Source: Bacteroidia bacterium (lineage in GTDB: Bacteria; Bacteroidota; Bacteroidia; UKL13-3). Taken from it: a DNA stretch of 64,000 nt. The notes under the pieces were generated by a model that ran no database searches, had not been told where the DNA came from, and saw only the letters and a program-made list of their open reading frames with translations. Below are positions 1-20,161 of the stretch, piece after piece. The translations under genes and the position numbers were made by a program. The stretch is from positions 1-64,000 of the forward strand of contig JAIOYZ010000006.1 in assembly GCA_021740845.1 (NCBI GenBank). The letters run 5' to 3'. Numbering within the stretch: the first letter of the stretch is position 1; every line of letters begins with the position of its first letter.

Positions 1-2275
1 GGTATTGGAAGCGATTACTTCATTAACAGTTACCTCAATGGCAGAACTGGTTAATGTTGCACAATCACCAGAACCTACCACACGACGGAACCAAGTGGTT
101 TGGGTTAATGCACTAGGAGAATAATCTATGGCATTATTTATTCCACTAGCAGAACTAAAGCCAGAAGAAGCACTGGTGGTACTACTTTCCCATACATACG
201 AGAATGGTCCATTTCCACCTGCTGGGGTTGAACCAACTAATGTACTTGGAGTGCTTCCTGTACAAATGGTTTGAGCACCACTTATGGTGTTTGCACTTAT
301 TACAGGTGTTACTGTTATTTCAATGGTTGAACTTGTATTGGATGAACAAACACCAGCACTAACTATTCTTCTATACCAAGTGGTTTGGGTTAAACTTGAA
401 GGACTATAACTAGCACTTGTTGAAGTGCCACTAGCTGCGCTAAATCCTGTTGAAGCACTGGTGGTGCTACTTTCCCATAAATAGGTATAACTACCATTGC
501 CTCCAGTTGGAGAGCTTCCACTTAAGGTACTTGGGATGCTACCTGAACAAATGGTTTGAGCACTTGAAATGGTATTGGATGCGATTAATTCATTTACTGT
601 TACCTCTATTATCGAACTAGTATTGGATGAACAAACACCCGCACTAACAACTCTTCTATACCAAGTGGTTTGGGTCAAACCTGAAGGACTATAACTAGCG
701 CTTGTAGAGGCGCCACTAGCTGCGCTAAATCCTGTAGAAGCACTGGTGGTACTACTTTCCCATGTGAAGGTATAGCTGCCATTGCCTCCTGTTGGGGCAC
801 TGCCACTTAAGGAACTTGGCGTGCTTCCTGTACAAATAGTTTGACTACTTGAAATGGTATTGGAAGCGATTACTTCATTAACCGTTACCTCAATAGCAGA
901 ACTAGTATTGGATGAACAAACGCCAGCACTAACTATTCTTCTGTACCAAGTGGTTTGGGTCAAACCTGAAGGACTATAACTAGCGCTTGTTGAAGTGCCA
1001 CTAGCTGCACTAAATCCTGTTGAAGCGCTGGTGGTGCTACTTTCCCATGTATAGGTATAGCTACCATTGCCACCTGTTGGAGAGCTTCCACTTAAGGTAC
1101 TTGGGGTACTGCCAGTACAAATGGTTTGAGCACTTGAAATAGTATTGGATGCGATTAATTCATTTACCGTTACCTCTATTGCCGAACTAGTATTAGATGA
1201 ACAAACACCAGCACTAACAACTCTTCTATACCAAGTGGTTTGGGTCAAACCTGAAGGACTATAACTAGCGCTTATGGAGCTACCACTAGTCGCACTAAAT
1301 CCTGTAGAAGCACTGGTGGTGCTACTTTCCCATGTATAAGTATGGCTACCATTGCCTCCTGTTGGGGCACTGCCGCTTAAGGAACTTGGCGTGCTTCCTG
1401 TACAAATGGTTTGACTACTTGAAATGGTATTGGATGCGATTACTTCATTTACCGTTACCTCAATTGCAGAACTGGTTAATGTTGCACAATCACCAGAACC
1501 TACCACACGACGGAACCAGGTGGTTTGGGTTAATGCACTAGGAGAATAATCTATGGCATTATTTGTTCCGCTAGCAGAACTAAAGCCAGAAGACGCACTA
1601 GTGGTACTACTTTCCCATACATACGAGAATGGTCCATTTCCACCTGCTGGAGTTGAACCAACTAAGGTACTTGGAGTGCTTCCTGTACAAATGGTTTGAG
1701 CACCACTTATGGTGTTTGCACTTATTACAGGTGTTACTGTTATTTCGATAGATGCAGTGGTATCACTACTATTAAGGGATGAAACTATTCTTCTATACCA
1801 AACTGTATTGGATAAACTAGATGGACTATAGTTTTTGTTTGAATTTGAACCTGATGCTGATGTAAAACCTGTTGATGAACTGGTAGAACTACTTTCCCAT
1901 AAATAGGAATATGAATTATTTCCTCCAGCAGGATCAGATCCAGATAAAATTGCAGGTGTTGAACCAGAACAAATAGTTTGGGCCGAAGAAATTGAATTGG
2001 ATGATATAATTGGAAAAACCGTAACTTCAATTGCGGTAGAGGTATCAGCAGTACAAACTCCTGCGTTAACAACCCGTTTAAACCAAGTAGTTTGGGTAAG
2101 GGCGGCGCTATTATAATTTAAATCTGTTCCAGACCCACTTACATTAATAAAACCAGAACTTGAATTAATTAAGCTAGAAATCCATTGGTAACTATAAATT
2201 CCATTTCCACCTGTTGCGTTAGAGCCATTCAATTGGGTAGGTAAAGTACCCGTAATAATACTTTGTGCTCCGCTT
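1..2275 (-). repeat. Eight tandem 285-bp units encoding 95-residue Ig-like repeats
   Basis: The codon complementary to AAT or TAT before the conserved isoleucine recurs at 283, 568, 853, 1138, 1423, 1708, 1990 and 2275. The step is exactly 285 bp, except one step of 282 bp. Units 284-1423 are near copies of one another. The unit at 1-283 instead matches the unit at 1424-1708 almost base for base, including a stretch absent from the others, giving a higher-order period of five units (1,425 bp). Units 1709-2275 are more diverged. DNA-level identity points to recent duplication or gene conversion. An assembly could collapse or expand this array. Confidence 0.93.
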
Positions 2276-5200
2276 ATAGAATTACTTGCTATCACAGGAT
2301 TTATGGTTACACCATATGCTGCAGTAGTTGTTTTACAACCAGTGGCATCCACAGAATCGCTAACAATTACAAAACCAGTTCCATTTGAACCCCAGTTTAC
2401 AGTAATTGAATTTGTTCCCTGTCCTGATCCAATTGATCCACCACTAACCATCCAAACATAGGATCTGCCAGAAGTTAAGGGTGTAGAATAAACAGCGGAA
2501 GTGCTTTCGCAAACAACTGTATCTCCACTTATTACTGGAGTTGGATAAGGATTAACTGTAACTAAATATGAATCTGTAGAGGTTTTACAACCACTAATAT
2601 TAACAGAATCTTGTACAATTAGTGTGGCAGAACTAGCATTACCCCAAGCTACAATTACACTATCTGTACCTTGTCCATAAGCAACAGTACCACCCACAGG
2701 AGTCCAGGTATAGGTTCGACCCAAATTAGAAGGAGTTGTATAATAGGTAGTATTATTTTCGCAAATTTCTGTTAAGCCAGAAACCATTGGTGTAGGTTTT
2801 AAATAAATATTTATGCCTTCCTGAATTGAATCATTTGTCAAATCCTCATCTCCATCAACCTGGGTATATGTTGAAATATCAACACTTCCACCTACAATTG
2901 AATTTATAGTAGATGAGAAAGTGAAGGTATCTATTTCCCCTGCCGATAAAGTATCTCTTAAAGTATCGCTAACCATGGTTGAAATAAACCCATTAATTGA
3001 ATAGGTTACAGGTATATTTATTAAATCTGCAACACCTGTATTTTTAACAACAATTGTTATAGGCATAGTGGCAGAACCACACTCATTATTAGAAGGACTA
3101 GTTCGAGCTAAAATTGAGGCTTCTGCTAATCTAAAGTCGTAGGCACCTATATCGGGTTTGGTGCTATGTCGAGGATTACCTTCTATGTCCTCAGTTAGGT
3201 CTGAAATTACTTGAGCCTTACCATTTACACAGTTACTATAGCCTCTCAAATTGGTTTCTGAAATAAATTCAGGATTACAACTTACAGAATTTATATCCTT
3301 ACTTGTTGCTGTTTGCCAAGCTGTAAGGGTAGTTTTCTCCGAACCTCCAATGAAACCTAATACACCTTTTGAACCTGAAGGGTAATAATCATTATTATCA
3401 ATAAAATCAAAGGCGGTGCTCAATGCATCAGAGTAAATACAATACATTTTACCAGAGGCATTAACTGAGGTCATCGAATTACTCAAGATGTTATTCCTAA
3501 AATCGATATTACTACTTCCTGAAGTAAAATAAATACATGATGAAAGAGAGCCCGAACTATTGGTTACCCCTCCAGTCATATTTATAGAGTTATGATAAAA
3601 ATTCAAATAACCATTGGTTCCATCCAAATAAATTCCAACTGGTGATGAGTTAGAAAAGGCACTCCATCCATCTCCTCCAATCCTTGTAATAACATTATTT
3701 ATAAAATATAAATACGAATTGGAAGAACCAGTATTTACATAAACCCCTCTTAATCCATATCCACCAGTAGAGGTATACTTCAAATTGTCAATTATGTTTG
3801 ACTCAATAGACACTGAATCTGTTCCAGTATAAATTGTAATACCAGCACTTATTAAGCTAGTTGAAGTATTTAGGATATTTTTAATTGTATTTTGGTATAT
3901 TTCAAGATAACGAGTATTTGTTGAATATATCCCTGAATATCCAATATAGTCAGTAGCGGTTTCTGAACCGATAACATTATTATTTATTTTAATATTATAC
4001 GCTTTATTTAAACTATTACCTTCTATTCTTATACCATAATATGCTTTTGAGAAAATGTTATTGGAAATGGTAATATTCTTATTATCAAATCCTGAAGTAG
4101 CCACACTTGTGCCTCCAATGGCAATACCATGAGTAGAGGTAATGGTTGAACTTCCACCTATAATATTACAATAACGAATGGTATCATTTTCAGAGCCATT
4201 TCCAGCAGATGTAGAAATAAATTGAATTACAGCAGAAGTTCCTGTACTTGTATTTGAGAATGTCAAACCAATATCATTACTTCCGTTATTACCATCAATC
4301 AAAATTCTATCAGCACCATTAAGTCTGATTAACCCTCCACCATAAGAACCAGAAACCAATTTAGAGGAACCAGAAGTAGGCTTTAGGTTCAAAACAAATT
4401 GACTTCCATTATTTATTTCGTCCAAAGGATTTAAGGCAACTGCACCAGTTTCTGTAAGGTTGCTTGAAATGCGCAAGGTTGTATTTCCTCCCAACCTATT
4501 GTCATTTATAAATTTAAATGCTCCATCTGTGCCAGTTAAGGAAGTAAATTGTTTTCCAGTTCCCACTTCAAACTCGCCACTTATTTCTGAAATTAAACTA
4601 GTAGAATGTGTATTTACTGCTGGAAAATTGCCTCCAACTAGGTTAGTTCCAACTGGATTTGTATTCATTGTTCCAGCACTAATTGAGGTATTTGGGCTAG
4701 AATATAGATCAGTGGCAACAATAAAATATTGAATTACATCTCCATCATTAGGCGAACCTCCATAGAGTTTACTAAAGTCCATTGTAAATGAAAATGGTGA
4801 ATTGCCAATACCTTCAGCTGTAACATATTTCCAACCATTATCGATACTGGTATTTCCAACAAGTGAATTGCCATCAGTAGATTTTTTATAGTACAATTTT
4901 GGCCTATTCGTACTAGTATCCACTCCACTTAAATCCGTTATGTAAACATTGTTTAATGTAATACCTGATTTACTTGGTTTGTATGGTGGAGTAAAAGTTA
5001 TAGTAGGTCCAATAGGGTCACCTGAATTTTCAAACGAACCAATAGTTGGCGTGCTTCCATTTCTAGTACTATCAATAATATCACCCAAAACGGTTATCGA
5101 TGTACCAGCTCCCAAAAGAGGTGAACCCGGGAATGGAATTAATAAATTATAGGAATTAAATAATGGATCATTAGATACTGAATTTGCATCTGCACTAGCT

Positions 5201-8200
5201 GCAACCTTCCATGATGTTAGGTTCATGGCTCCACTATAGTAAGTTGCATTGGTAGAAATAGAACTATAATATAAATTATAATTGACATTTACTCCAGACC
5301 AACCTGTAGTAGTGGCAACATAAATTCCATAATTATTGGATGCACCTCGCGAATTTGCGAAGGCATTGTTATACATGGTTCTTGCATTTGCTCCTGATTT
5401 ATAATAAGCGGCGCACAATGAAGAGTTAGATGAATTTCCTGTGATATTAACTGAATTGTACTGGAAAGTACTTGTACCTGAAGATGCATCATAGATACCA
5501 TAGATACTGATATTCGAGTTTGATCCATATCCCAAAGCAATTGAATTATTATTTGCAACCAAAACTCCAGTTGATGAATAGTAAATTCCATAAGTGGTAC
5601 TTGTTCCAACCAAATCATGAATTCTATTTTTCGTCATATTCACATTACCTGCTCCACCAATATTAAATCCATAAAGAATATTATTGGCACTAAAATTTGA
5701 AATGGTATTTCTATTAATTTCCAAACCTGTTTGTCCTGTTAGGTAAACACCATATGGAGATGCTGTTGAATTAGAAGACCATGCGTTAAAGCTATTATCA
5801 TTTATAGTATGTGTTGATGCACTTGTTGAGTAATATCCATAAATTGTTGTTGCACCACTACTAATAGAGTCCATTGTGTTATTAGAATAATTCACACTAG
5901 CAGTAGAACTAGAATAAACCCCATAAAAGGTTCCAGCAGTTTGAGTAATACGCTTGAAAATATTGTTCTGAATTGAATAAGTATTTGGGGAGGCACTTGT
6001 TAAATAATACCCATAAGTAGTATTGGCAGTATTGTAGCCAATAAATGAATTACCTGAAACTATGGTTGACCCACCTGTTGCAAGGTAATACCCATAAGTG
6101 GTGCTTCCTGCAGACAATCCGGAAATAGTATTTTCCCTCAAGAAAGCATTTGAACCTCCTGCTAGGTAAATTGGATACAAAGTACTCGTACTTCGAATGT
6201 TAGAAATAGTATTGCTATCAATTTCTAAGGAATCTCCATTAGTTGCATAAACACCATAAGTTGTAGAAGCAGAATTCCATCCTCCCAAATTATTGTTTAC
6301 AATTTGAGGGCTTCCAGAACCTATATAATAAATACCATAAATGGAACTAGTTGCCTTAATTGTATCTGAAGCTTCAGCGTCTCCACCAATCCTATTATTG
6401 GTAATAGATAATTCACCTCCAGTTCCATAAATTCCATAAAACGAAACTGTTGATATATTCGAAATTATATTATTCGAAATTATGGTTTGATCCGTATCAT
6501 TAATTGTTGAAACCTCAATTCCTGTAAAAGAGGGGAAGGTAGATGATGTAACCGTCAAAGCTGTTCCAGTTCTTGTAGAATTTGATCCTCCAATATTATT
6601 TCCATCAATTATATGACCTACACCCGATAAGAATGAAATTGCCTTAAGTTGAGAGGACCGAGGAGATGTTTGATAGAAATTATTATTAGAAATTTCCCAA
6701 TTAATTCCTGCTGAATTGTTAGAAGCTCGTATACCATAAGAAGTCCAATTAAAAATCGAATTTCCTTTAATATAAACACTATCATTTTGACTAGAATTGG
6801 ATTGAATTCCTATACCAGGAGTTGCAGATGTGCTAGTCAAATCTCTAATTTGGTTATTTTCAATCCAAATCAAATCATTTCCAAAAACACCAGCACCAAT
6901 AAAAATAGCAGCACTCAAAGTTCCAGCACCTTCAATAATACTGTTTGTTAGGGTGTCATTTCTAGTTCCATTTTCTAAAACAAAAACATTCCCATTTGAA
7001 TTTGAATTTTGGAATTTCAAATACGTATCACTACCTGTTCCCCCTTTAATACTAACATTTTTTGCTCCATCAATCCTAATCAATCCACCAGAATAATTTC
7101 CAGATATAGTTCTCATGGTTGTGGCATCTGGTACTATAGAAACACGGTAACCTCCGGCACCTTGTTCATCCCATTGAATTAATCCTACATCGCCACTTTC
7201 CGAAAGGTCGGACTTAACAATGAGCCTTACATCACCAGAAAGTATATTGCCATTAACAAAATTAAAAGCACCATTTGATCCAGTTAAACTTGTTAATGAT
7301 TCTGAAACTCCTACATTATAATCTCCTGAAATTAGAATCTGAACTCTATATCGGTTCATATCGCCACTAACAGGGAAATTGGCAGCACTTAAATTCACAC
7401 TTGTTGGGTTACTTGTAAATGTGGCCTCATTCGCCGAAACATGTGCAATGGAGACACTATCCTGTGCTATTACAAAATATTCAATATCCTCTCCTCCACT
7501 TATACCTCCAAATAATTTTGTATAATCAAAAGTAAATTGGAAAGGTGAAACACTATTATTTGCTTCCACATATTTCCACCCATTATCTGAACTTGTATTG
7601 CCAACATAAGTATTGGCATTGGTTGATTTACGATAATACAACCTAGGCTTCAAACCGCTTCCAACCTGCACCCCGCTTGGATCTGTAATGTTTACCAAAT
7701 CAAAAACCCTGTTTGATGTACTAACAATATTTGAAAGTGGCTCATAGGAAATATCAGGAGAACCGTTATCATATAAACTGTCGTAAGCACCTATATTCGG
7801 AATGGTTCTAGTCATTCCAGTAATATCTGTTAAATAACCTGTTCCAGTGTATGCAGAAACAGAAGCTATGGCAGAATTAGGTGTTGGGCGTAAATTGGTT
7901 TTTGTATTAAACTTAGGATCCCCATTACTTGAGTTAACATCTGCTGAGCTAGTAATTTTCCAATCGCTAAAGCTAGCAATACTTGCTCCATTGAAACTAG
8001 CTAAGGTATCCAAACTACTATATAATAAATTGTTATCCACCATTGCACCATTCCACCCTGTTGAATTATCAATTCTTATGGCGTAATGATTTACATTTCC
8101 ACCTGTTCTTTGATTAGAGAAAATATTATTTCGCAAACTATCCACACCTGTTGAAGTTCTTCTAAAAGCAGCCGAAGAATTCCCAATATTCCCATTAAAA

Positions 8201-11200
8201 ACGGTTCCTGCTAGATTTACGGAATTATAATAAAATTGGTTGGTTCCTGCACCCGCATCTTGTATACCAATTGCTGAAATATTTCCATCTTGGTTCAAAC
8301 CGATTGCTATAGAATTATTGACATAGGTAGCATTGCCACTTGCAGCATAAATGCCGTATAGTGAAGATGAGTTTGGTTCACCCAAAGTGGAACTGGTTTT
8401 AATCTCTTCAATGATATTTCCAGAAATTTCTGTTTTAATTCCACTTGAACCAACATTTGAAATATAAATACCACCTGAAGCTCCTTGTCCACCTGTTGCA
8501 CTTAGGCTAATATTACGTATGGTATTACCAAAAATAAGGTTTCCAGAGTTACTGGTTTGAACCAAAACTCCTAATGCACCAAAGGATCCACTTGTAGAAA
8601 ATCCTGTAGTAATATTTTCAATACTATTCTCTTGAACCAAATTAGTACCAGAAACAAATGAAGTTGCATATATCGACCCAGTTCCAGATTGGTTCAAATC
8701 TGAAATTGAATTTTGAATGAATTTATTGGAAGCAGAATTGCCCGAATAAATACCATAAATGGTGCCTGTACCATTTGCTGAAATATTAGATATGGTATTT
8801 GCTGAATCGGTAATTTGGGAAGAACCTGAATGATAAATTCCATAGTAAGTAGCGCTAATAAAATTATCTTCTAAGTTATTTTCAGAAATATACCAAGTAT
8901 TTGGACTTGCACTATTTGTATTTATTCCCATAGTTGTTCCACCCGTATTGGTATTGTTTGAAATCGTATTATTTGAAATAGTTCCTAAACCATTAGTAAA
9001 ATAAATACCATAGTGGGTAGAAGAGGCTGTATTATTCGATATGGTATTATTGGTTACTTCAAAAGAACCTGCAACTGCACTATAAATAGAATAAAACGTG
9101 GATGATGCTGAAAAATACTGAATAGAATTGTTTCTAACCAATCCATTTGTATTGCTACTTGTAAAATATATTGGATAGGTAGATGAAGTAGTATTTATTC
9201 CTTCTCCTAATGAACCAATTGTATTATTCTCGGCAACTATATTTCCACCTAAAGAATTTAAAGCGTAAAAAGCTCCACTTGAAATATTGCCAAAAGTATT
9301 ATTTCTAAAATAAGAAGTATCACCAGCTGTAATGGCTTGACCCGAAACATAAGCACCATAAAAAGTACTTGTCATTTGCCAAACAGAGCCCGACCTTCCT
9401 GATGCACTTCCTCCAAAACTATTATTGGTTATGGTATGGTTATTTCCTAATGCATAAATTCCATATTGGGTGCTGGCTGACGTTGGCAAATTGCGATAAA
9501 AATGATTTTGGTCGAATACAAAACTTTGATTAGAGGTGGCTGAAGTAATATATATTCCTAAAGTTATAAAATTGCTAATTTCATTTGAAACAAATTTTAA
9601 ACCTGAGTTACCTGTAGAGCCAATCATTATTTGTGTATAAGGAGCAATTCCAGTATTGGAATTATGTCTAAACAAATTCCCAGATATATAAAGATTTTGA
9701 TTTGAAGTTGTACCCGACCCAAGATTTAAAGCACCTCCTGTTGTTCCAGAAGAAGAACTATTATCACTTTCAAAAATCACATTTCTTAAGGTATCATTTA
9801 TCCCTGAATTGATAGCCAAAGCAGAAGCGGTTGCTGTATTATTCCTAAACATTAAATACCTACCAGATCCATCATAACTTCCATCAATAACCAAACCTTC
9901 CACACCATTCAATCGAATAAGAGGACTGGTATTACTTCCTTGAACTGTTCTTTCAACCGCAGAATCTACTCCAATTACAACATTAAAGGTACCTCCTTCA
10001 AATTGAAGTGCTGAAAGTGCAATGGTCCCTGATTCTAAATTCAAATCAGAACTAATTTCTACACGTAAATCTCCAACAATTACATTCTCATTAATTGCAT
10101 TAAACAAGCCACTTGAATCAGTAAGATTGGTATATGTTTGACCCGACCCAACTTTAACGGTACCTATAAATCCCGTAACAGCGATGTTATAAGAATTTAC
10201 TCCACTTACAGGAAAGTTGGAATTATCTAAATTCACACTTGTTGGCCCACTGGTAAAAGTTGCGGAATTATCCCCAACATTCATATCCAAAGTATTATCC
10301 TGGGCAACAACAAAATATTCAATTTCATCTCCAGCATTAACCGCTGCTCCTGTTAATTTCGAATAATCAAAAGTGAAACTAAAAGGCGAAGCAGATTCAT
10401 TTGATTCAACATATTTCCATCCATTAACCGCAGAGGTATTTCCTACATATTGGTTAGTATTGCTTGATTTTTTATAATACAATCTTGGCTTTGTTCCAGC
10501 AAGTACATTTACACCACTTGTATCAGTAATAATAACGTTGGTTAATGTGCGGTTACTAGTTAACAAAGTAGTTGGTAAATTGACAAAACTAATTTCAGGT
10601 CCTACTAAATCTTTAGTGTTTTCGTAAGCCCCGATACTTGGTGTACTTACATTTCGAGTACTATCTAAATAATCTGTGGCAAATCCTGGAATGGCAATAC
10701 CAGCTGAATAATTGGAAGAGTTTGGTTGTAAAATTAAAACAGGATATGTATTGAATTTTGGATCAGAACCTCTTCCATTGGCATCGGAACTGCTTGCGGT
10801 TTGGTATGCAGAAAAAGTTTTTGCCCCCGAATAATAAACTGCATTAGCAGAGTTAACAGAATAAATATTGTTGTAATCTATTGTGCTTCCACTCCATCCA
10901 GTAACATTTCCAATATAAATTCCATAATTATTACTCAAACCTCTAAAATTAGTAAAAACATTATTTTTGGCGGTAATTGTACTTGAACTACTTTTATAAA
11001 ATGCCGCTGTGGTATTGGTATTCCCTGCATTTCCATTAATCAAAACAGAGTTAAAATAATATTGATTCGAACCAGTACTTCCATCAAATATTCCATAAAT
11101 AGTTGCATTGGCAGTCATATCATTTCCTAAGGCAATAACATTATTATCAACAATTGCCCCTGAGGAACTAGCTAAATAAAATCCATATTGGGTTCCAAGG

Positions 11201-14200
11201 GAATTGATATTGTACAACCTATTTTTTGAAATTGTTCCAACACCACCAGCTTGGTAAAAATTGTAAAAAGTGCTGGCTAATGGGCCATAAATATTATAAT
11301 AAGTATTGCCTGTGAAGCTTACATTTCCGGAAGATGTACTAGCAATGTAATACAATCTAGGACTCGTACTTAGGGTATAGGTTAGATTGGAAATGGTATT
11401 GTTTGTGAAGGTATGTGTACCACTCGAACTACCATAATAAAAATAACAGGTAGAAGTTGTGGAAATAGTAATACTATCCCACATATTGTTTGTAAAACTA
11501 TAGTTACCCGTGCTGGAAGCATAAGTGGAATATGCAGTTCCTGCCGTTTGTGTAATATTTCTTACATCGTTGTTGCTATAATTATAGGTACCAGTACTCG
11601 TAAGGTAAAACAAATATGAAGTTGAGTTTAAAGTTAAATTTCGCAATCGGTTATTAGAATAATTAACGATACCTGGACTTGCACTTAATGCATACAAACC
11701 ATAGAATGTAGATGAATGGGTGATATTTTCAATTAGGTTATCACTAATAGTATTGGTACCCAAAGATTGAATATAAATTGCTGCAGTGGTTGATGTATTT
11801 AATAACTCATAAATATGATTATTGGTAACATTTACACCAGATGCTCCTGAGCTTGCCATAATTGCATAAGCAGTACTTGGAGAGGAAACTCTGTAAATTT
11901 CATTGCTATCAATTGTATGGTTTGAACCACCCAATAAATAAATGGAATACATAGTACTACCTGCTGAAATATTTGAAATGGTATTATTTGAAAAATCAAT
12001 AGTACCTCCACCAGTTTTATATAATGGATAGGTAGTACTTGTATTAATAATGGTATCATTAACCAGAGTCAATCCCCCAATAATATTTCCTCTTAAATTA
12101 ACATCACCACCATTTAGGTAGATTCCATAAAATGAGCTTGAATTAATATTGGAAATAGTATTGTGGTTAATAGTATTTGCATTCGTCCCAGATGACTGTA
12201 AATAAATCCCATAAAAAGTATTTGAAGTAACAGTGGCCGTTCCAACCCTGCTAGAATCACTTCCTCCAATACTATTGTTATTTATATTATGTCCTGCACC
12301 AGATTGCAACCAAATAGGATAAAGCACAGAAGTACGTGAGGCAGTTTGATAAAAACGATTACTTTCAATTGCCCATCCATCTCCCGCACCAGAAGAAGCT
12401 CCAGAAGTTTGCCAACGAACACCAGCACTTGAAAAATTATAAATATTATTAAACTCAATTCTATTATTTGAATTTCTATTTGAGGCACTATAAATGGAAT
12501 ACAAAGGCAGATTTCCAGCATCGTCACCAATATCACAATAACCAATATAGTTTCCTGAATTTGCATTTGTGGCTGAACCAAAATAAATATTACCACTAGT
12601 TGAAGAGGTATTCCTACCTTGAATAATTGCAAACCGAATGGTATCATTTTCTGCATCGGTACTAAAATGAAAAACATTACCTGATGCATTGCTATTAACA
12701 AATCGCAACCATTTTCCACTTTCATTTTTTCTTCCATCTATAATAACTCCATCGGCTCCATTAAATCGGATCAAACCGCCTGAATAATTACCACTTATTA
12801 CAATTTCCGAACCAACGGTATCAGCTGGTTGAATGGTTAAAGTATATCCTGAACCGCCAAATTCAGACCATTGATTAATACCATTTGTGGCTGGCTCAGG
12901 AATATTTTCCAAAATTTTAGCTGTAATATTTCCAATTACAGTCTTTGAATTAATATCCTCAAACAATCCTCCAGTGCCTGTCAAGGTCGGATAATCTCCT
13001 CCACTTCCAATCGTATAAGTTCCACTCATTGTTGGACTAAATTGGTACGACTTTAATGTACCACCAATTGGAAACGCTGTGGAGGCTAAAACCACTGAAC
13101 TCGGATTTATTGCAAAACTTCCACTCTGAATCCCAACATTAGCTGTTGGTGCCAAATCTTGAGCCACAACAAAATACTGGATGATATCACCTATTGCTAA
13201 ACTAGAATAAGCATTTAATAATTGATGGTTAATGGTAAAGGTATAAGGACTTGCCCCTGTTCCATTTGCCACCACATATTTCCAGCCTGTATAATTGCTG
13301 TCATTGGCTGTCGCCAAACTATTTGGTTCAGAACTTTTCTTAAAATATAACCTTGGACGATTTAGGGAGTCTACACCACTAGCATCCGTAACAACAACAT
13401 CCAAAATTTCTCGAGAACTTGTAACCGGTGCATTACCTAAATTGGTAAAAGATATTCCAGGAGAAGTTAAATCTAATCCTACGAAATCATCCTCGTGTGC
13501 CCCCACATCTGGGGCAGTTCCATTTCCAGAATAGCCAACATCACCATATCTTGCATTACCAAAGAAATCTCCAACTACACCGGTAGGATTTGTAATAGCC
13601 AATCCACCAGATTCGGCTTGGGTGGCAATACTATTGTTAATTCTCAAATCATAGGGAGCTGAGGTGGAATTTAGGAAAGGAGGCAAAGAAGAAAAACTGC
13701 CCGATTCACCACCAACTCTAGTTTTAAAACCTGCTATTGTTTGATCTCCATTTGCGGTAAATTGATCAAAATACACGAAATTATATGGAGAACCAGTACC
13801 TCCATAATAGTTATTGCTATTGGAACTACTTCCATGATTAGCTAAACTTCCACCTGCACTTCTCCAATACCCAGCTGTAACAGCATTAGCATTTCCACTT
13901 CCAGGGGTTGAATTATTAATTACTAAGTTATTGATAAATTCCAAATTTCCTGGACTAGAGCCAGCAAATATCCCTGCCGATCCAAAACTAGTGCTGCTGC
14001 TTGTAGCAGAGAGAAAAATTGTATTAAAATAAGCACCAATATTACCTCCATTTGAAAAATACATTCCTGTTACACCAGGTGCTGAAGAACTTGTAGTTGC
14101 TGTTAATTCAGAAATAATATTATTATAAACAAACGTATGCCTTAATCCAGAACTTCCTATGCAATAAATACCATTTACACTGCCTGAAGTAGTAGTTAAA

Positions 14201-16029
14201 TTTCGTATGAAATTCTTATAAAACCGCAAACTATCATACGTTGAAAAATAGGCTCCATAAATTGTACCTGTAGTAGATAAATCTTCAATGGTATCCTGGT
14301 AGGTTCTAATGATTGTACCAGAAGTAGCTCCATTGAGAAATATGCCATAAGTAGTTGTTGAACCCGTGCTTGAAATACCTTTTACCTTATTATTATATAC
14401 TGTATGAATTGCAGAGGTAGAATTGGCTCCACTGGTATATAACCCATAAGTAGTTCCACCTGTGGCAGTCTTAGTTTCATTATTAATTAAATTATTATAA
14501 ATATTCAAATTAATTGGAGATCCAGTTCTATTTAATCCATAATAAGTTCCTGAGGTTTGGTAAATGCTATTATTTTCAATCCGATTGTTATAAACATCGC
14601 AATTGGTTGAACTTGAAGTAATGTTTAAACCATACATGCTACTTGTACTACCCCTAAAGGTATTTCCTGTTATGAAATTATCATTTATGGTTAAATTGGT
14701 AGAAGAACTTGAAACAAAAATTCCTGCAGAGGTTCCTGTTCCTAAAGTAGATTGATTTCTAGTATTTCCACTTATGGTATTGTTATTAATAATCCAACTA
14801 TTATTGCTTGCTGCTCCTCCTGTCATATACAAACAATAATTTGTACCCGTGGCGGTTGAGGACCCACTTCCATAAGAATTATTCTGGATAATATTATTGC
14901 TACAATTTAAATTGTAAGGACTTGCACTGCTGTATATATAATATAGAGTTGAGGAAGTTGGAACTGTCCAAGTCCAATTACTTACATTATTATTAGTTAT
15001 ATTAACCGTATTATTTGTTCCAGATGACCCTCCACCATTAATAATTCCATAGGTGGTACTTCCCGCAACTGTGCGATTAAATGTTATAGAATTGGAATCA
15101 ATTGTAATATTAGCATTTGTTGCCGTATTTGAATAAATACCATAAATAGCACTGCTTGCTGAAGCTAAATTTGAAATGGTATTCTTCCGAATAGAAACCT
15201 CGTTCTGATAAATTGTATGAATACCATAGGTCGTTGTATTTGAACCAAAATTTTCAATCGTATTTCCTTGACTAGTTCCAATATTTATTCCTTGATCGTA
15301 ATATGGCGTGGTGGAATTACCATAAAACATTATCCCACATCCAGCATTTATGATGGTACATCCATCAATGGTAATATCTCTAAATCCTCCAGCTACTGAG
15401 GTTGGAGCTGTTGTGGTTCCAGCATCATTTAAATTAACGGCCCGAATTCCCATGGTGTACAAAACAGCACCATTCTTTAAAGTTACAACACAATTTCGGA
15501 TTGTTACATTTTGACAACCATTCGTTGAAGACTGCCTAACCAATAAATAACCACTTTCTACTAATAAACTAGTTGTGGTTCCTGTATATCCCTCAGTTAG
15601 GTCAATTCCATCAAAAGTAATATAATCCGTTCCTACCAATTTAATTATTCCATCCCCATTACTTGTAGTATTGCTTGTTCCTGCAACTGTACCATTTCCA
15701 GCTGCGGCAGTGGATATTTTGGGATTAACGCCAACACCACTTTTTTGAAAAACAATGGGATTTGATGCCGTTCCAGTTGCCGTTATTTTATAATTTGCTA
15801 AACTAGAAACCGTTTCTGTGTGGCCTGCTGCAACATTAAAGGTAACACCGCCACTTCCAACTCCTGAGGAATTGAGAGCAGTAATTGCAGCTGCTATTGT
15901 TGCATAATCAGGACTACCGCCTCCAACGGTTTTAGTTCCTGTTAATTGACCAAATACGGTGGTAGAATTGACTACCAAAACCGATAAAAAGAGAATCAAA
16001 ACTTTGCCTAGAGAATTGGATTTTTCCAT
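1..16029 (-). CDS. Giant secreted multidomain beta-helix / Ig-like repeat protein (C-terminus off left edge)
   Basis: The frame stays open from an ATG at 16029 to the window edge, at least 5,343 residues. Residues 1-28 form a signal peptide (hydrophobic core, then VFGQ). Roughly 40-840, 990-1790, 1970-2750, 2910-3660 and 3820-4290 are rich in NTISN, YGIY and NNNS words, typical of right-handed parallel beta-helices. Four linker domains near 841, 1797, 2754 and 3667 share a TSGV..RPRLYYKKSS core and a DxIxYFVVAQD strand. A CARDB-like domain (about 4304-4410) and two PKD/Ig-like domains (to about 4577) precede 95-residue Ig-like repeats with ICTGSTPS, TQTTWYRR and SSAIEVTVN motifs. The architecture is that of Bacteroidota cell-surface T9SS cargo. 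A C-terminal sorting domain would lie outside the window, so secretion by T9SS is inferred. Function is unknown; adhesion or matrix formation is plausible. No clear TAnnTTTG box was found before it. Confidence 0.9.
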   Translation of the reverse strand, partial: MEKSNSLGKVLILFLSVLVVNSTTVFGQLTGTKTVGGGSPDYATIAAAITALNSSGVGSGGVTFNVAAGHTETVSSLANYKITATGTASNPIVFQKSGVGVNPKISTAAAGNGTVAGTSNTTSNGDGIIKLVGTDYITFDGIDLTEGYTGTTTSLLVESGYLLVRQSSTNGCQNVTIRNCVVTLKNGAVLYTMGIRAVNLNDAGTTTAPTSVAGGFRDITIDGCTIINAGCGIMFYGNSTTPYYDQGINIGTSQGNTIENFGSNTTTYGIHTIYQNEVSIRKNTISNLASASSAIYGIYSNTATNANITIDSNSITFNRTVAGSTTYGIINGGGSSGTNNTVNITNNNVSNWTWTVPTSSTLYYIYSSASPYNLNCSNNIIQNNSYGSGSSTATGTNYCLYMTGGAASNNSWIINNNTISGNTRNQSTLGTGTSAGIFVSSSSTNLTINDNFITGNTFRGSTSSMYGLNITSSSTNCDVYNNRIENNSIYQTSGTYYGLNRTGSPINLNIYNNLINNETKTATGGTTYGLYTSGANSTSAIHTVYNNKVKGISSTGSTTTYGIFLNGATSGTIIRTYQDTIEDLSTTGTIYGAYFSTYDSLRFYKNFIRNLTTTSGSVNGIYCIGSSGLRHTFVYNNIISELTATTSSSAPGVTGMYFSNGGNIGAYFNTIFLSATSSSTSFGSAGIFAGSSPGNLEFINNLVINNSTPGSGNANAVTAGYWRSAGGSLANHGSSSNSNNYYGGTGSPYNFVYFDQFTANGDQTIAGFKTRVGGESGSFSSLPPFLNSTSAPYDLRINNSIATQAESGGLAITNPTGVVGDFFGNARYGDVGYSGNGTAPDVGAHEDDFVGLDLTSPGISFTNLGNAPVTSSREILDVVVTDASGVDSLNRPRLYFKKSSEPNSLATANDSNYTGWKYVVANGTGASPYTFTINHQLLNAYSSLAIGDIIQYFVVAQDLAPTANVGIQSGSFAINPSSVVLASTAFPIGGTLKSYQFSPTMSGTYTIGSGGDYPTLTGTGGLFEDINSKTVIGNITAKILENIPEPATNGINQWSEFGGSGYTLTIQPADTVGSEIVISGNYSGGLIRFNGADGVIIDGRKNESGKWLRFVNSNASGNVFHFSTDAENDTIRFAIIQGRNTSSTSGNIYFGSATNANSGNYIGYCDIGDDAGNLPLYSIYSASNRNSNNRIEFNNIYNFSSAGVRWQTSGASSGAGDGWAIESNRFYQTASRTSVLYPIWLQSGAGHNINNNSIGGSDSSRVGTATVTSNTFYGIYLQSSGTNANTINHNTISNINSSSFYGIYLNGGDVNLRGNIIGGLTLVNDTIINTSTTYPLYKTGGGTIDFSNNTISNISAGSTMYSIYLLGGSNHTIDSNEIYRVSSPSTAYAIMASSGASGVNVTNNHIYELLNTSTTAAIYIQSLGTNTISDNLIENITHSSTFYGLYALSASPGIVNYSNNRLRNLTLNSTSYLFYLTSTGTYNYSNNDVRNITQTAGTAYSTYASSTGNYSFTNNMWDSITISTTSTCYFYYGSSSGTHTFTNNTISNLTYTLSTSPRLYYIASTSSGNVSFTGNTYYNIYGPLASTFYNFYQAGGVGTISKNRLYNINSLGTQYGFYLASSSGAIVDNNVIALGNDMTANATIYGIFDGSTGSNQYYFNSVLINGNAGNTNTTAAFYKSSSSTITAKNNVFTNFRGLSNNYGIYIGNVTGWSGSTIDYNNIYSVNSANAVYYSGAKTFSAYQTASSSDANGRGSDPKFNTYPVLILQPNSSNYSAGIAIPGFATDYLDSTRNVSTPSIGAYENTKDLVGPEISFVNLPTTLLTSNRTLTNVIITDTSGVNVLAGTKPRLYYKKSSNTNQYVGNTSAVNGWKYVESNESASPFSFTFDYSKLTGAAVNAGDEIEYFVVAQDNTLDMNVGDNSATFTSGPTSVNLDNSNFPVSGVNSYNIAVTGFIGTVKVGSGQTYTNLTDSSGLFNAINENVIVGDLRVEISSDLNLESGTIALSALQFEGGTFNVVIGVDSAVERTVQGSNTSPLIRLNGVEGLVIDGSYDGSGRYLMFRNNTATASALAINSGINDTLRNVIFESDNSSSSGTTGGALNLGSGTTSNQNLYISGNLFRHNSNTGIAPYTQIMIGSTGNSGLKFVSNEISNFITLGIYITSATSNQSFVFDQNHFYRNLPTSASTQYGIYALGNNHTITNNSFGGSASGRSGSVWQMTSTFYGAYVSGQAITAGDTSYFRNNTFGNISSGAFYALNSLGGNIVAENNTIGSLGEGINTTSSTYPIYFTSSNTNGLVRNNSIQYFSASSTFYSIYSAVAGSFEVTNNTISNNTASSTHYGIYFTNGLGTISNNTISNNTNTGGTTMGINTNSASPNTWYISENNLEDNFISATYYGIYHSGSSQITDSANTISNISANGTGTIYGIYSGNSASNKFIQNSISDLNQSGTGSIYATSFVSGTNLVQENSIENITTGFSTSGSFGALGVLVQTSNSGNLIFGNTIRNISLSATGGQGASGGIYISNVGSSGIKTEISGNIIEEIKTSSTLGEPNSSSLYGIYAASGNATYVNNSIAIGLNQDGNISAIGIQDAGAGTNQFYYNSVNLAGTVFNGNIGNSSAAFRRTSTGVDSLRNNIFSNQRTGGNVNHYAIRIDNSTGWNGAMVDNNLLYSSLDTLASFNGASIASFSDWKITSSADVNSSNGDPKFNTKTNLRPTPNSAIASVSAYTGTGYLTDITGMTRTIPNIGAYDSLYDNGSPDISYEPLSNIVSTSNRVFDLVNITDPSGVQVGSGLKPRLYYRKSTNANTYVGNTSSDNGWKYVEANNSVSPFQFTFDYTKLFGGISGGEDIEYFVIAQDSVSIAHVSANEATFTSNPTSVNLSAANFPVSGDMNRYRVQILISGDYNVGVSESLTSLTGSNGAFNFVNGNILSGDVRLIVKSDLSESGDVGLIQWDEQGAGGYRVSIVPDATTMRTISGNYSGGLIRIDGAKNVSIKGGTGSDTYLKFQNSNSNGNVFVLENGTRNDTLTNSIIEGAGTLSAAIFIGAGVFGNDLIWIENNQIRDLTSTSATPGIGIQSNSSQNDSVYIKGNSIFNWTSYGIRASNNSAGINWEISNNNFYQTSPRSSQLKAISFLSGVGHIIDGNNIGGSNSTRTGTALTVTSSTFPSFTGIEVSTINDTDQTIISNNIISNISTVSFYGIYGTGGELSITNNRIGGDAEASDTIKATSSIYGIYYIGSGSPQIVNNNLGGWNSASTTYGVYATNGDSLEIDSNTISNIRSTSTLYPIYLAGGSNAFLRENTISGLSAGSTTYGYYLATGGSTIVSGNSFIGYNTANTTYGYYLTSASPNTYSIQNNIFKRITQTAGTFYGVYSSSTASVNYSNNTMDSISSGATTIYGYYSTSASTHTINDNSFNAWSSNSTASPYGVYLTGQTGLEINRNTISNFSANNILYGFNIGGAGNVNMTKNRIHDLVGTSTTYGIYYSSTGVLVANNNSIALGYGSNSNISIYGIYDASSGTSTFQYNSVNITGNSSNSSLCAAYYKSGANARTMYNNAFANSRGASNNYGIYVATTTGWSGVNVNYNLYYSSISTNATYYSGAMNLTSWKVAASADANSVSNDPLFNSYNLLIPFPGSPLLGAGTSITVLGDIIDSTRNGSTPTIGSFENSGDPIGPTITFTPPYKPSKSGITLNNVYITDLSGVDTSTNRPKLYYKKSTDGNSLVGNTSIDNGWKYVTAEGIGNSPFSFTMDFSKLYGGSPNDGDVIQYFIVATDLYSSPNTSISAGTMNTNPVGTNLVGGNFPAVNTHSTSLISEISGEFEVGTGKQFTSLTGTDGAFKFINDNRLGGNTTLRISSNLTETGAVALNPLDEINNGSQFVLNLKPTSGSSKLVSGSYGGGLIRLNGADRILIDGNNGSNDIGLTFSNTSTGTSAVIQFISTSAGNGSENDTIRYCNIIGGSSTITSTHGIAIGGTSVATSGFDNKNITISNNIFSKAYYGIRIEGNSLNKAYNIKINNNVIGSETATDYIGYSGIYSTNTRYLEIYQNTIKNILNTSTSLISAGITIYTGTDSVSIESNIIDNLKYTSTGGYGLRGVYVNTGSSNSYLYFINNVITRIGGDGWSAFSNSSPVGIYLDGTNGYLNFYHNSINMTGGVTNSSGSLSSCIYFTSGSSNIDFRNNILSNSMTSVNASGKMYCIYSDALSTAFDFIDNNDYYPSGSKGVLGFIGGSEKTTLTAWQTATSKDINSVSCNPEFISETNLRGYSNCVNGKAQVISDLTEDIEGNPRHSTKPDIGAYDFRLAEASILARTSPSNNECGSATMPITIVVKNTGVADLINIPVTYSINGFISTMVSDTLRDTLSAGEIDTFTFSSTINSIVGGSVDISTYTQVDGDEDLTNDSIQEGINIYLKPTPMVSGLTEICENNTTYYTTPSNLGRTYTWTPVGGTVAYGQGTDSVIVAWGNASSATLIVQDSVNISGCKTSTDSYLVTVNPYPTPVISGDTVVCESTSAVYSTPLTSGRSYVWMVSGGSIGSGQGTNSITVNWGSNGTGFVIVSDSVDATGCKTTTAAYGVTINPVIASNSISGAQSIITGTLPTQLNGSNATGGNGIYSYQWISSLINSSSGFINVSGSGTDLNYNSAALTQTTWFKRVVNAGVCTADTSTAIEVTVFPIISSNSISSAQTICSGSTPAILSGSDPAGGNNSYSYLWESSSTSSSTGFTSASGSNSNKNYSPSSLSNTVWYRRIVSSLNSSDTTASIEITVTPVISANTISGAQTICTGSTPSTLVGSTPAGGNGPFSYVWESSTTSASSGFSSASGTNNAIDYSPSALTQTTWFRRVVGSGDCATLTSSAIEVTVNEVIASNTISSSQTICTGSTPSSLSGSAPTGGNGSHTYTWESSTTSASTGFSATSGSSISASYSPSGLTQTTWYRRVVSAGVCSSNTSSAIEVTVNELIASNTISSAQTICTGSTPSTLSGSSPTGGNGSYTYTWESSTTSASTGFSAASGTSTSASYSPSGLTQTTWYRRIVSAGVCSSNTSSAIEVTVNEVIASNTISSSQTICTGSTPSSLSGSAPTGGNGSYTFTWESSTTSASTGFSAASGASTSASYSPSGLTQTTWYRRVVSAGVCSSNTSSIIEVTVNELIASNTISSAQTICSGSIPSTLSGSSPTGGNGSYTYLWESSTTSASTGFSAASGTSTSASYSPSSLTQTTWYRRIVSAGVCSSNTSSTIEITVTPVISANTISGAQTICTGSTPSTLVGSTPAGGNGPFSYVWESSTTSASSGFSSASGINNAIDYSPSALTQTTWFRRVVGSGDCATLTSSAIEVTVNEVIASNT

Positions 16030-16656: not shown

Positions 16657-17241
16657 CTACAAATTCCCCTTTTCAGCCATATAGGCTTGGGCTACTTCGT
16701 GGAGTTCTGTATACCATTCTTCTCCAAATTTGCTGATGAGCGGTTCTTTTAAGAATTTGTAAACTGCAACTTTTTCTTGTTTTCCTAAAGTGCAAGCAGC
16801 GCTGCAAATATCCCAACGATGGTAATTAAGCGCGGTATAATCTCCTACTTTTAATAAACGAATAGGGTATAAATAACAAGAACTTGGTTTGCGAATGCTT
16901 GATTTTCCACCCAAGAAACTCTTTTCAATGCCACAACTTAATAAGCCATTTTCGTCGCGTTTTACAAAATTGCACTCACCAGTTGGAAGGCAGGTGGTAA
17001 CCCATTCGTCATCTTCGTCTTTTTCAAAACCACCTCTTTTTTCTAAATCGAGTAAAGATTTCTCACTCAAATAAGGCTTTATAACTTCAAAGTTTTTCTC
17101 AATTTCTTCGCGTTCTTCCTTAGAAACAGGAGCGCCGCTATCGCCTTCAATGCAGCAAGAACCTTTGCAGGCACTCAGGTTGCAAATAAATTCCTTTTCA
17201 AAAAGGTCTTCCGAAATAAGGGTATCGCCAATAATTATCAT
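16657..17241 (-). CDS. DUF3109 family cysteine-rich protein
   Basis: This 194-residue protein matches the DUF3109 family, small cytoplasmic proteins related to YkgJ-type metal-chelating proteins. Cysteines C20, C25, C29 and C30 form a C-x4-C-x3-CC cluster. More cysteines follow in TTCLPTGEC, LLSCG, SSCYLYP and ICSAAC, enough to bind one or more metal ions or an Fe-S cluster. No signal peptide or membrane segment is present. The gene is divergent from rlmN. The 76 bases between the two ATGs as called contain a GGTTCAAACC motif and a 7-bp inverted repeat (17275-17281 with 17303-17309). The family is firmly recognised; its biochemical role is not known to me. Confidence 0.85.
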   Translation of the reverse strand: MIIIGDTLISEDLFEKEFICNLSACKGSCCIEGDSGAPVSKEEREEIEKNFEVIKPYLSEKSLLDLEKRGGFEKDEDDEWVTTCLPTGECNFVKRDENGLLSCGIEKSFLGGKSSIRKPSSCYLYPIRLLKVGDYTALNYHRWDICSAACTLGKQEKVAVYKFLKEPLISKFGEEWYTELHEVAQAYMAEKGNL

Positions 17242-18421: not shown

Positions 18422-20161
18422 TTAATTGGTTCGAACCAATTTTAAAATACTGGTATTTCCTTTTTGATCCGAACAACGTAAAAGATAAATTCCACTAGAG
18501 AATTCCTTTGGATTAATTTCTATTTGTTGCTCAAATCCATTTGATTTCTTAATCACTTCTCCATTGATATTACTTAGTTCATAATTCAACAAATCGCTAT
18601 AAGTTGTATTTACAATTAAGTTTCCATTTCCTTCTGCAAAACCTTGCGAATTAATTAGGTTCAAACCGTTTATAGCTCTAGGTTTATCAATACCTGCCAC
18701 TACACTAAAACCTCTAGCATTTAGGCGTTGCGCCATAATTACACCATGTTCGTAACCATATAAAATACTATCCGATTGCATGAGCAGTTTTGCAGCAGTT
18801 TGCATGGTCATGTAGGAGTAATAACTATAAATAGAATTCAATAAAATTTTGGTTATTACCTCTCTGCCTAAATCATCACTTAAATCGTTGAGCATGCTGC
18901 TCCAAATTAAGGATGAAACATAGAAATCAGAATTTAAATCTTTAGGATAGATATTTGGACTATTAGCATCTCTACCATCCCAATAATCGTTATGACCATC
19001 CCAATTAAAAACTTCACGCCATTTGTAAGTTGAAATAGCCTTAGAATATTGACAAGCCATAAAATCACAATTAGCCTCCTCTATAGCCAAACGCTCGTTT
19101 CCATTGGTTGTATTGGGAGCAATAAAATAATTTATTCCATGAGTATATTCATGTATTATTACATCTGCATCTTCTGCATCGGGCACGCCACCAGTTCCAA
19201 AATACAATGCAGGATTACTTTGAGAATAAGAAAAACGAGATTGGTCCTGACCTTGATAAGCAGTTGGATCAACTTGTAAAACTTGCATACCCGTTAGCGG
19301 CAAACCAATAGAACTTAGATACTCTCGTAGAGTTTGTATATGGTACAAACAATTCATTTCCCTAAAAACAGACTGACTTCTAGTAAATGAAAAATTGGCT
19401 TGTGTAGACTTAAAAACAGTTTGTACTGGCGACTCTAAATCTAAAATTGTAATATAGGGTGAAGCAGCATAAAAGGTGTCGTTTTCAAATTTAATTTGTA
19501 TTGTTCTTTGCTTCAACTCACCTGTTAATTCAGGAGAATCGGCGCCTGCATAGTTTTTCCAAAGACCGCCTTCTCCGTATGCTTTTTCCGCTGTAGTTAA
19601 AGGATCTGGATTATAAACTTTAGTTTGTACAACTGTATCTTTTCTTACCATTAAATCCAATACTTTGGTTTGAACCAAGTCATTGTATAAAGTATAAAGA
19701 TATTCTGTCATCTCTCCTTTTTCATTACCTTGAACCAAGAGTTTTAAAATTTGCCAGGAATCGTTTGAATGAAAAAACACCAAATCTTTTTGGTTCAAAC
19801 CGCTACTTGCTTTTTCTATATTTAGCAAATTATTAATTGGAACTAATTGATCCGATTCGCTCAATATTTTTCCATCAAAACTTAAATTCAATTTAAAGGA
19901 AGCTCCATAAACCAAAATCCCTTGATGTTTTTGAATGAACAAATAATGGGTTCCAATTTCACTGGTACGAACTGCAATTAACTCCAACTCATTTGAGTTC
20001 GCAAATAACCATTTGTGGCCTGCCAAAACATAGTCCCAAGCAAATTCATTTGGGTTAGTTTCGGTTTGAACCAAATTAGTTTTAAGTAATTTTGAAGATG
20101 CTTGCACGCTAATTTGGAGCAAGGCAAATAAGATAAAAATAAAGGCGAAATATTTTTTCAT
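18422..20161 (-). CDS. Secreted M4/M36-like zinc metalloprotease with T9SS sorting domain
   Basis: This 579-residue extracellular protease starts with a signal peptide (MKKYFAFIFILFALLQISVQA). An FTP/PepSY-like propeptide region follows (about 25-150). The zinc site is H337-E-Y-T-H341, with glutamates E361/E362 in AIEEANCD twenty and twenty-one residues on, close to the thermolysin-clan spacing. The last 80 residues resemble a T9SS type A sorting domain (LSNINGEVIK, SSGIYLLR, KLVRTN). Export across the outer membrane by the Por system is inferred from that domain. The gene is last in a four-gene minus cluster, one base after the yigZ-like gene. Its last codons lie in an 18-bp perfect palindrome. 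Five motif copies occur in or at the end of this gene. Confidence 0.85.
   Translation of the reverse strand: MKKYFAFIFILFALLQISVQASSKLLKTNLVQTETNPNEFAWDYVLAGHKWLFANSNELELIAVRTSEIGTHYLFIQKHQGILVYGASFKLNLSFDGKILSESDQLVPINNLLNIEKASSGLNQKDLVFFHSNDSWQILKLLVQGNEKGEMTEYLYTLYNDLVQTKVLDLMVRKDTVVQTKVYNPDPLTTAEKAYGEGGLWKNYAGADSPELTGELKQRTIQIKFENDTFYAASPYITILDLESPVQTVFKSTQANFSFTRSQSVFREMNCLYHIQTLREYLSSIGLPLTGMQVLQVDPTAYQGQDQSRFSYSQSNPALYFGTGGVPDAEDADVIIHEYTHGINYFIAPNTTNGNERLAIEEANCDFMACQYSKAISTYKWREVFNWDGHNDYWDGRDANSPNIYPKDLNSDFYVSSLIWSSMLNDLSDDLGREVITKILLNSIYSYYSYMTMQTAAKLLMQSDSILYGYEHGVIMAQRLNARGFSVVAGIDKPRAINGLNLINSQGFAEGNGNLIVNTTYSDLLNYELSNINGEVIKKSNGFEQQIEINPKEFSSGIYLLRCSDQKGNTSILKLVRTN
18424..18441. 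repeat. 18-bp perfect palindrome built on GGTTCGAACC
   Basis: AATTGGTTCGAACCAATT spans the last codons and part of the stop of the metalloprotease gene, 3 bases past the rlmN stop. It is the fully symmetric form of the dispersed 10-mer. As RNA it can fold on either strand, so it might also serve as an end signal for both convergent genes. Confidence 0.75.

What the first reader, a model, noticed from the sequence alone, without database searches (positions are those of the whole stretch)
1..16029. Giant secreted protein of more than 5,300 residues
One frame of 16 kb without a stop encodes a signal peptide, five beta-helix stretches and a long Ig-like stalk. This is a quarter of the window and among the largest proteins a bacterium makes. 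The overall plan (sticky helix head, repetitive stalk, presumably a T9SS anchor) suggests a surface adhesin or matrix protein. No relative with this exact order is known to me.
Basis: partly seen in the sequence, partly recalled or inferred. Interest (0 to 1): 0.6.

Follow-up and report, generated by a model that had tools for sequence, protein, structure and literature searches.

The report
Giant surface protein with exchangeable head
This is the front two-thirds or so of a bacterial surface protein probably 8,000 to 9,000 amino acids long, whose stalk, export tag and neighbouring membrane-protein gene are shared across the genus while its front end differs between species, probably so that each species grips different surfaces.

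Summary
One frame (16029 to 1, minus strand) stays open for 5,343 codons and runs off the contig edge. It holds an apparent signal peptide, five right-handed beta-helices joined by four Ig-like linkers (about 945-residue period; AlphaFold pLDDT 88 for one module), two PKD-like domains and at least eight 95-residue Ig_7 repeats.

The missing end can be placed. Contig C3 of the same genome opens inside a frame of HYR-like repeats that ends in a T9SS type A sorting domain (TIGR04183), followed 25 bp later by an OmpA-family gene. Gene order in ten related species puts the window's edge next to C3. A sister species carries the same domain order, and three complete relatives (7,871-8,741 residues) run head, PKD/Ig_7, HYR, tail, OmpA. 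Expected full length is about 7,900-9,000 residues.

Stalk, tail and OmpA partner are conserved (OmpA follows the tail in 12 of 12 species), but the head is not: three head types occur, and two species with 79% identical tails have unrelated heads. Best reading: a T9SS-exported, statically anchored fibre with an exchangeable adhesive tip. Adhesion and OmpA anchoring are inferred. The kind is known; this head-swapping family appears undescribed.

The parts
1..16029 (-). 5' part (5,343 codons) of a giant secreted protein gene; runs off the contig edge at base 1
   Evidence: P(no stop) about 1e-174; 50% identical ortholog over 4,010 aa in G001
15946..16029 (-). apparent Sec signal peptide, residues 1-28 (MEKSNSLGKVLILFLSVLVVNSTTVFGQ)
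   Evidence: by eye from the translation; not tested with a predictor
13630..15945 (-). beta-helix 1, residues about 29-800
   Evidence: self-similarity to helices 2-5
12442..13566 (-). linker 1: helix end, Ig-like domain and N-cap of helix 2
   Evidence: profile A1, 561 bits
10135..13017 (-). module 2 (residues 1005-1965): helix N-cap, long right-handed beta-helix, Ig-like domain; the part modelled by AlphaFold2
   Evidence: pLDDT 87.9, pTM 0.81; beta-helix folds at Z up to 30; Pfam Beta_helix in helix regions
9574..10671 (-). linker 2
   Evidence: profile A1, 557 bits
6754..7812 (-). linker 3
   Evidence: profile A1, 563 bits
3979..5076 (-). linker 4; helix 5 follows to about residue 4290
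   Evidence: profile A1, 500 bits
2815..3147 (-). CARDB-like single beta-sandwich domain after the last helix (residues about 4295-4405)
   Evidence: by eye; no Pfam hit; the region is conserved in G001 C60, 49% identity over residues 4151-4590
2290..2793 (-). two PKD_6 domains (residues 4413-4580)
   Evidence: PF19408 39.6 bits; local profile
1..2286 (-). array of at least eight 95-residue Ig_7 repeats (285 bp); contig breaks inside it
   Evidence: PF19081 54.3 bits; tandem repeat 285 bp x 6; unit identities
16657..17241 (-). DUF3109 gene upstream of the giant; in relatives it is the direct neighbour of the genes found beyond the tail on contig C3, which is what places C3

Best explanation
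The window holds the head and upper stalk of a giant fibre protein, probably 7,900-9,000 residues in full, exported by the type IX secretion system and held on the outer membrane. SHOWN by sequence: five beta-helices with Ig-like linkers, then PKD_6/Ig_7 repeats; relatives continue with HYR-like repeats, a type A sorting tail and an OmpA-family gene. INFERRED: the tail on own contig C3 is the end of this gene; Sec exports the chain, SprA/PorV/PorU move it out and anchor it C-terminus first; about 40-50 small beta-sandwich domains form a long stalk; the helix head at the far end binds a carbohydrate or surface; the OmpA partner (beta-barrel plus peptidoglycan-binding domain) braces the base against pulling force. 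The head is exchanged between species by recombination while stalk, tail and partner stay, which would retarget the fibre.
For: Domain order. Tail on C3 = TIGR04183 48.1 bits and PF18962 49.2 bits. Join C35-C3: the genes beyond the tail on C3 (hydratase C3:5379-6890, DUF6268 gene C3:4341-5270) are the immediate or near neighbours of the window's DUF3109 gene, in the matching orientation, in ten relatives that lack the giant there; C3's repeats and tail are 59-66% identical to those of complete giants; G001 has our head (50%), our stalk order on C60 and the same HYR repeats. T9SS present: SprA 2,545 bits, PorU 1,314 bits. OmpA gene directly after the tail in 12 of 12 loci; Pfam OMP_b-brl + OmpA. 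Head exchange: G005/G008 tails 79%, OmpA 80%, heads with 3% alignable coverage; G004 tail 87%, OmpA 91%, DUF3109 89% to G001 yet residues 1-7074 are 85% identical to G008, while its upstream WD40 gene on the same contig follows G001 at 75%. Helix columns conserved at 80% or more across 39 module copies are only N, G and I, no catalytic type. Type A tails lead to static anchoring or release (PMC12618676).
Against: No read or single contig spans C35 to C3; the middle is missing. The G001 ortholog is itself in three contigs, and the G004 tail lies on another contig than its head. Signal peptide not tested. Type A tails can also lead to release into the medium (PMC12618676). No binding data; the closest solved helices include lyases and epimerases. 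An OmpA gene next door is not proof of a physical partnership. The stalk model failed (pLDDT 40).
Confidence: 0.66

Rival explanations
1. The head is an array of polysaccharide-active enzymes (lyase, epimerase or hydrolase) held on a stalk, so the protein degrades or modifies a matrix rather than gripping it.
For: The modelled helix fits AlgE epimerases (Z 30), RbmB lyase (Z 29) and PL6 alginate lyases (Z 27) best; Foldseek also ranks PL6 first.
Against: All of these are the same common beta-helix fold, shared with non-enzymes and tailspikes; Pfam gives only the generic Beta_helix family. Across 39 copies no charged or catalytic-type residue is conserved in the helix, only the structural N/G/I pattern, and His, Lys and Glu are rare in the head (0.6, 1.8 and 2.1%).
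Confidence: 0.12
2. It is a mobile gliding adhesin that works like SprB and is carried along the cell by the gliding machinery.
For: Similar size and repeat build: SprB is a 6,497-residue filament (PMC9870892). The genome has SprA and encodes at least 23 proteins with CHU_C (type B-like) tails.
Against: SprB has a type B tail and a PorP/SprF shuttle gene downstream; here the tail is type A and the downstream gene is OmpA-like. Giving SprB a type A tail ends in static anchoring or release (PMC12618676).
Confidence: 0.08
3. It is released after export and acts as an extracellular matrix protein between cells rather than as an anchored fibre.
For: Type A tails can lead to release as well as anchoring (PMC12618676); a repetitive S/T/N-rich protein suits a matrix.
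Against: The strictly kept OmpA partner with a peptidoglycan-binding domain (12 of 12) points to a bond with the envelope; PorU is present.
Confidence: 0.14

Closest known systems
SprB of Flavobacterium johnsoniae (6,497 aa; PMC9870892, PMC9143113)
   Same: Bacteroidota, T9SS export, giant repetitive filament, partner outer-membrane gene directly downstream
   Different: SprB has a type B tail, SprF (PorP-like) partner and is propelled for gliding; here type A tail, OmpA-type partner, beta-helix head
AtaA-TpgA of Acinetobacter sp. Tol 5 (PMC13082670)
   Same: works like it: long surface fibre, about 260 nm in AtaA, with an OmpA-like peptidoglycan-binding partner that resists membrane extraction
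   Different: AtaA is a trimeric autotransporter (type V); unrelated protein and export route; the OmpA gene here also has a beta-barrel domain
Giant1-5 of Apilactobacillus kunkeei (PMC12863079)
   Same: 3,000-8,000 aa surface proteins with an N-terminal beta-solenoid head on a long rod; head sequence exchanged between species
   Different: Gram-positive, alpha-helical rod, different anchor; no T9SS, no OmpA partner
PF13229/PF19408/PF19081/PF02494/PF18962 proteins of Bacteroidota (T9SS type A cargo)
   Same: every domain type of this protein is in a described family
   Different: the combination of five helices, this stalk order, tail and OmpA partner was not found in any described system

Membership tests
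T9SS type A cargo (TIGR04183 / PF18962) | C-terminal type A sorting domain on the same polypeptide | tested here: inconclusive
   The window ends before the C-terminus. The tail on C3 passes the cut-offs (48.1 and 49.2 bits) and seven complete relatives end in such tails; the join to this gene is by gene order and architecture, not by a spanning read.
T9SS type A cargo (TIGR04183 / PF18962) | T9SS translocon and sortase in the genome | tested here: met
   SprA 2,545 bits, PorU 1,314 bits, 150 matches to the Por_Secre_tail family at E <= 0.001
T9SS type A cargo (TIGR04183 / PF18962) | N-terminal Sec signal peptide | not tested
   Typical sequence by eye in own protein and G001; no predictor at hand
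SprB-type gliding adhesin (type B cargo) | type B / CHU_C C-terminal domain | tested here: not met
   C3 tail matches type A only
SprB-type gliding adhesin (type B cargo) | PorP/SprF-like gene directly downstream | tested here: not met
   Downstream gene is OMP_b-brl + OmpA; no PorP family among its listed matches
PL6 / AlgE beta-helix enzymes | sequence match to the enzyme family | tested here: not met
   Pfam finds only generic Beta_helix PF13229
PL6 / AlgE beta-helix enzymes | beta-helix fold | tested here: met
   AlphaFold pLDDT 87.9; Z up to 30; the fold shows no function
PorE (T9SS peptidoglycan anchor), for the OmpA partner | TPR, propeller and OmpA domains | tested here: not met
   Only OMP_b-brl and OmpA domains; the PorE model matches its OmpA part alone, 47 bits against a cut-off of 600

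The most novel reading that the evidence does not exclude
A genus-wide T9SS 'fibre with interchangeable tips': a conserved stalk, type A tail and a dedicated OmpA-type outer-membrane partner form a chassis onto which unrelated heads of about 4,000 residues (beta-helix arrays, BNR-associated heads, G8/fn3/GEVED heads) are swapped by recombination between species, and the OmpA protein is a partner-specific anchor, a role so far known in T9SS only for PorP/SprF shuttles of type B cargo.
Probability: 0.35. Interest if true: 0.65.

Novelty: new variant of a known kind. Interest (0 to 1): 0.45.

Why it matters
If true, it offers a naturally occurring system in which the tip of one of the longest bacterial surface fibres is exchanged while the chassis is kept, in the way phage tail fibres and some lactobacillus giants are retargeted. 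It would also make testable whether T9SS type A cargo can have its own dedicated outer-membrane anchor, which so far is described for type B cargo (PorP/SprF). It shows as well that giant genes broken by repeats can be completed by gene order across species.

Tried and rejected
Other contig edges that enter in mid-frame and end in a sorting tail (C15 start and C25 end with CHU_C; C41 start, C13 end and C59 start with type A) were considered as the missing end and rejected because none carries the HYR repeats seen in G001 and the complete relatives, and only C3 has the matching gene neighbours. The idea that C3's tail belongs to another giant at the usual WD40 locus of own contig C8 was tested: C8 ends in non-coding tandem repeats after the WD40 gene, with no giant frame, and the other flank of that locus (C49:67171-70911) has no giant or OmpA gene either. 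DNA overlap of the contig end with another contig: none. Near DNA matches in plasmid and phage collections: none. AlphaFold of three Ig_7 repeats failed (pLDDT 40), probably because four near-identical copies give no signal. A profile of the linker found no solved structure by sequence; the module profile found only short weak beta-helix matches. Paper searches for this domain set or for a T9SS giant with an OmpA partner found nothing.

Full report
OBSERVATION. The minus-strand frame from 16029 to 1 is open for 5,343 codons with an ATG start. From base composition a random frame would stay open that long with a probability of about 1e-174, and a same-genus protein aligns at 50% identity over 4,010 residues, so this is a real gene. 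It is open at its 3' end because the window begins at base 1 of contig C35 of a 4.09-Mb, 66-contig assembly. The assembly breaks inside a 285-bp tandem repeat whose units are up to 96% identical.

ANATOMY IN THE WINDOW. An apparent signal peptide (by eye) is followed by five beta-helix regions. Four copies of a linker (helix end, Ig-like domain, N-cap of the next helix) separate them with a period of about 945 residues and 37-38% identity to the first. After helix 5 come a CARDB-like domain (by eye), two PKD_6 domains and at least eight 95-residue Ig_7 repeats. AlphaFold2 on module 2 with 38 relatives gave pLDDT 87.9: a beta-helix of roughly 690 residues and an Ig-like domain. The best structural fits are AlgE epimerases (Z 30), RbmB, PL6 lyases, phage tailspikes and the pneumococcal adhesin PfbA; these share a common fold and do not settle function. 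In 39 aligned modules, helix columns conserved at 80% or more are only Asn, Gly and Ile, that is, structural positions.

THE MISSING END. Own contig C3 begins inside a frame of 885 residues made of eight HYR-like repeats, ends in a type A sorting domain (TIGR04183, 48.1 bits), and is followed 25 bp later by an OmpA-family gene. Three lines put it after the window. First, gene order: in G001, G003, G004, G006, G014, G017 and G018 the DUF3109 gene (ortholog of window 16657-17241) is directly followed by the ortholog of C3:5379-6890, a NAD(P)H-hydrate dehydratase; in G002 and G005 the two are close neighbours with a small frame between; and in G009 it is directly next to the ortholog of C3:4341-5270, always in the orientation that the join requires. 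Own genome therefore has the giant plus OmpA between two genes that are neighbours elsewhere. Second, the sister species G001 carries the same head (50%), and its contig C60, open at both ends, runs helix 5, PKD, Ig_7, PKD, Ig_7, HYR, with the same tail and OmpA on C297. Third, three complete relatives (G003 7,871, G005 8,144, G008 8,741 residues) run head, PKD/Ig_7, four PKD, two Ig_7, 24-27 HYR, tail in one frame. From their stalk lengths (3,493 to 4,573 residues) this protein should be about 7,900-9,000 residues. This is inference: no read spans the gap.

CONSERVED CHASSIS, CHANGING HEAD. The tail region is found in 15 of 19 species of the genus, and in all 12 loci examined the OmpA gene follows. 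Tails are 54-96% identical between species. Heads are not: own, G001 and (N-terminal fragment) G007 have five-helix heads; G003 and G005 share a second type (47%), with other N-terminal domains and diverged helix modules; G008 and G004 share a third (87%) with G8, fn3 and GEVED domains and no linker. G005 and G008 have 79% identical tails, 80% identical OmpA proteins and the same gene neighbours, but heads with 3% alignable coverage. G004 resembles G001 in tail (87%), OmpA (91%), DUF3109 (89%) and the WD40 gene just upstream on the same contig (75%), but its residues 1-7074 are 85% identical to G008, whose tail is only 64% identical to that of G004. This is best explained by horizontal replacement of head and upper stalk. 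The G004 tail lies on another contig, so the downstream crossover is inferred.

RELOCATION. In G001, G003, G005 and G008 the giant lies downstream of the EtfB/EtfA/PPTase/WD40 genes, and the WD40 gene also precedes it in G004; where the far side is read (G001, G003, G005, G007, G008) the same small genes follow the OmpA gene. Own genome keeps both flanks of that locus (C8 edge; C49:67171-70911) without giant or OmpA. The pair has therefore moved in the window's species, or arrived anew at the DUF3109 site with loss of the old copy.

MECHANISM. The genome has SprA and PorU. Published work shows that type A tails use the PorV shuttle and give static anchoring or release, whereas type B tails use SprF-like shuttles encoded downstream and can be mobile (PMC12618676; PMC9143113). 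The likely course is export by Sec and T9SS, retention by the C-terminus, a stalk of some 40-50 small domains and the helix head outermost; from general knowledge of domain sizes this would reach roughly 250 nm (estimate, not measured). The kept OmpA partner, a beta-barrel plus peptidoglycan-binding domain, suggests a brace against pulling, as TpgA does for AtaA (PMC13082670). That step is a hypothesis.

KNOWN OR NEW. Proteins of 5,000 residues or more are not rare: 41,754 in UniProtKB (PMC11573180). Linker modules like these occur in 59 of 98 relatives and in 68 loci, mostly Bacteroidota, Kapabacteria and Ignavibacteria. Head exchange of solenoid domains in giant surface proteins is described for lactobacilli (PMC12863079). 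The specific family, with stalk order, type A tail, OmpA partner and exchanged heads, was not found in the literature searched. I rate it a new variant of a known kind.

Noticed in passing
own genome C8:1-480: About four tandem copies of a roughly 120-bp non-coding repeat follow the WD40 gene at the contig edge, at the site where other species carry the giant gene.
   Followed up: partly
own genome C15:1-549 and C25 end (L063, L064): Two CHU_C-tailed C-termini with identical first 46 codons sit at contig edges: recent paralogs that also broke the assembly.
   Followed up: no
own genome C33:13358-17437: A separate 2,157-aa PKD_6-rich protein frame keeps almost exactly the same length (2,156-2,158 aa) in G003, G011, G013 and G016, in contrast to the length-variable giants.
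   Followed up: no
own genome: 150 matches to the T9SS tail family and several more frames above 4,000 aa (C32, C49): the species spends much of its genome on secreted modular proteins.
   Followed up: no
L167-L178, G004/G008 loci: G004 carries a head and upper stalk 85% identical to G008 on a locus otherwise G001-like, a clean case for mapping a crossover.
   Followed up: partly
window 18422-20161 (-): A peptidase-like protein with a thermolysin-type propeptide motif and a weak T9SS tail lies near the giant; related sequences follow RlmN in several relatives.
   Followed up: no
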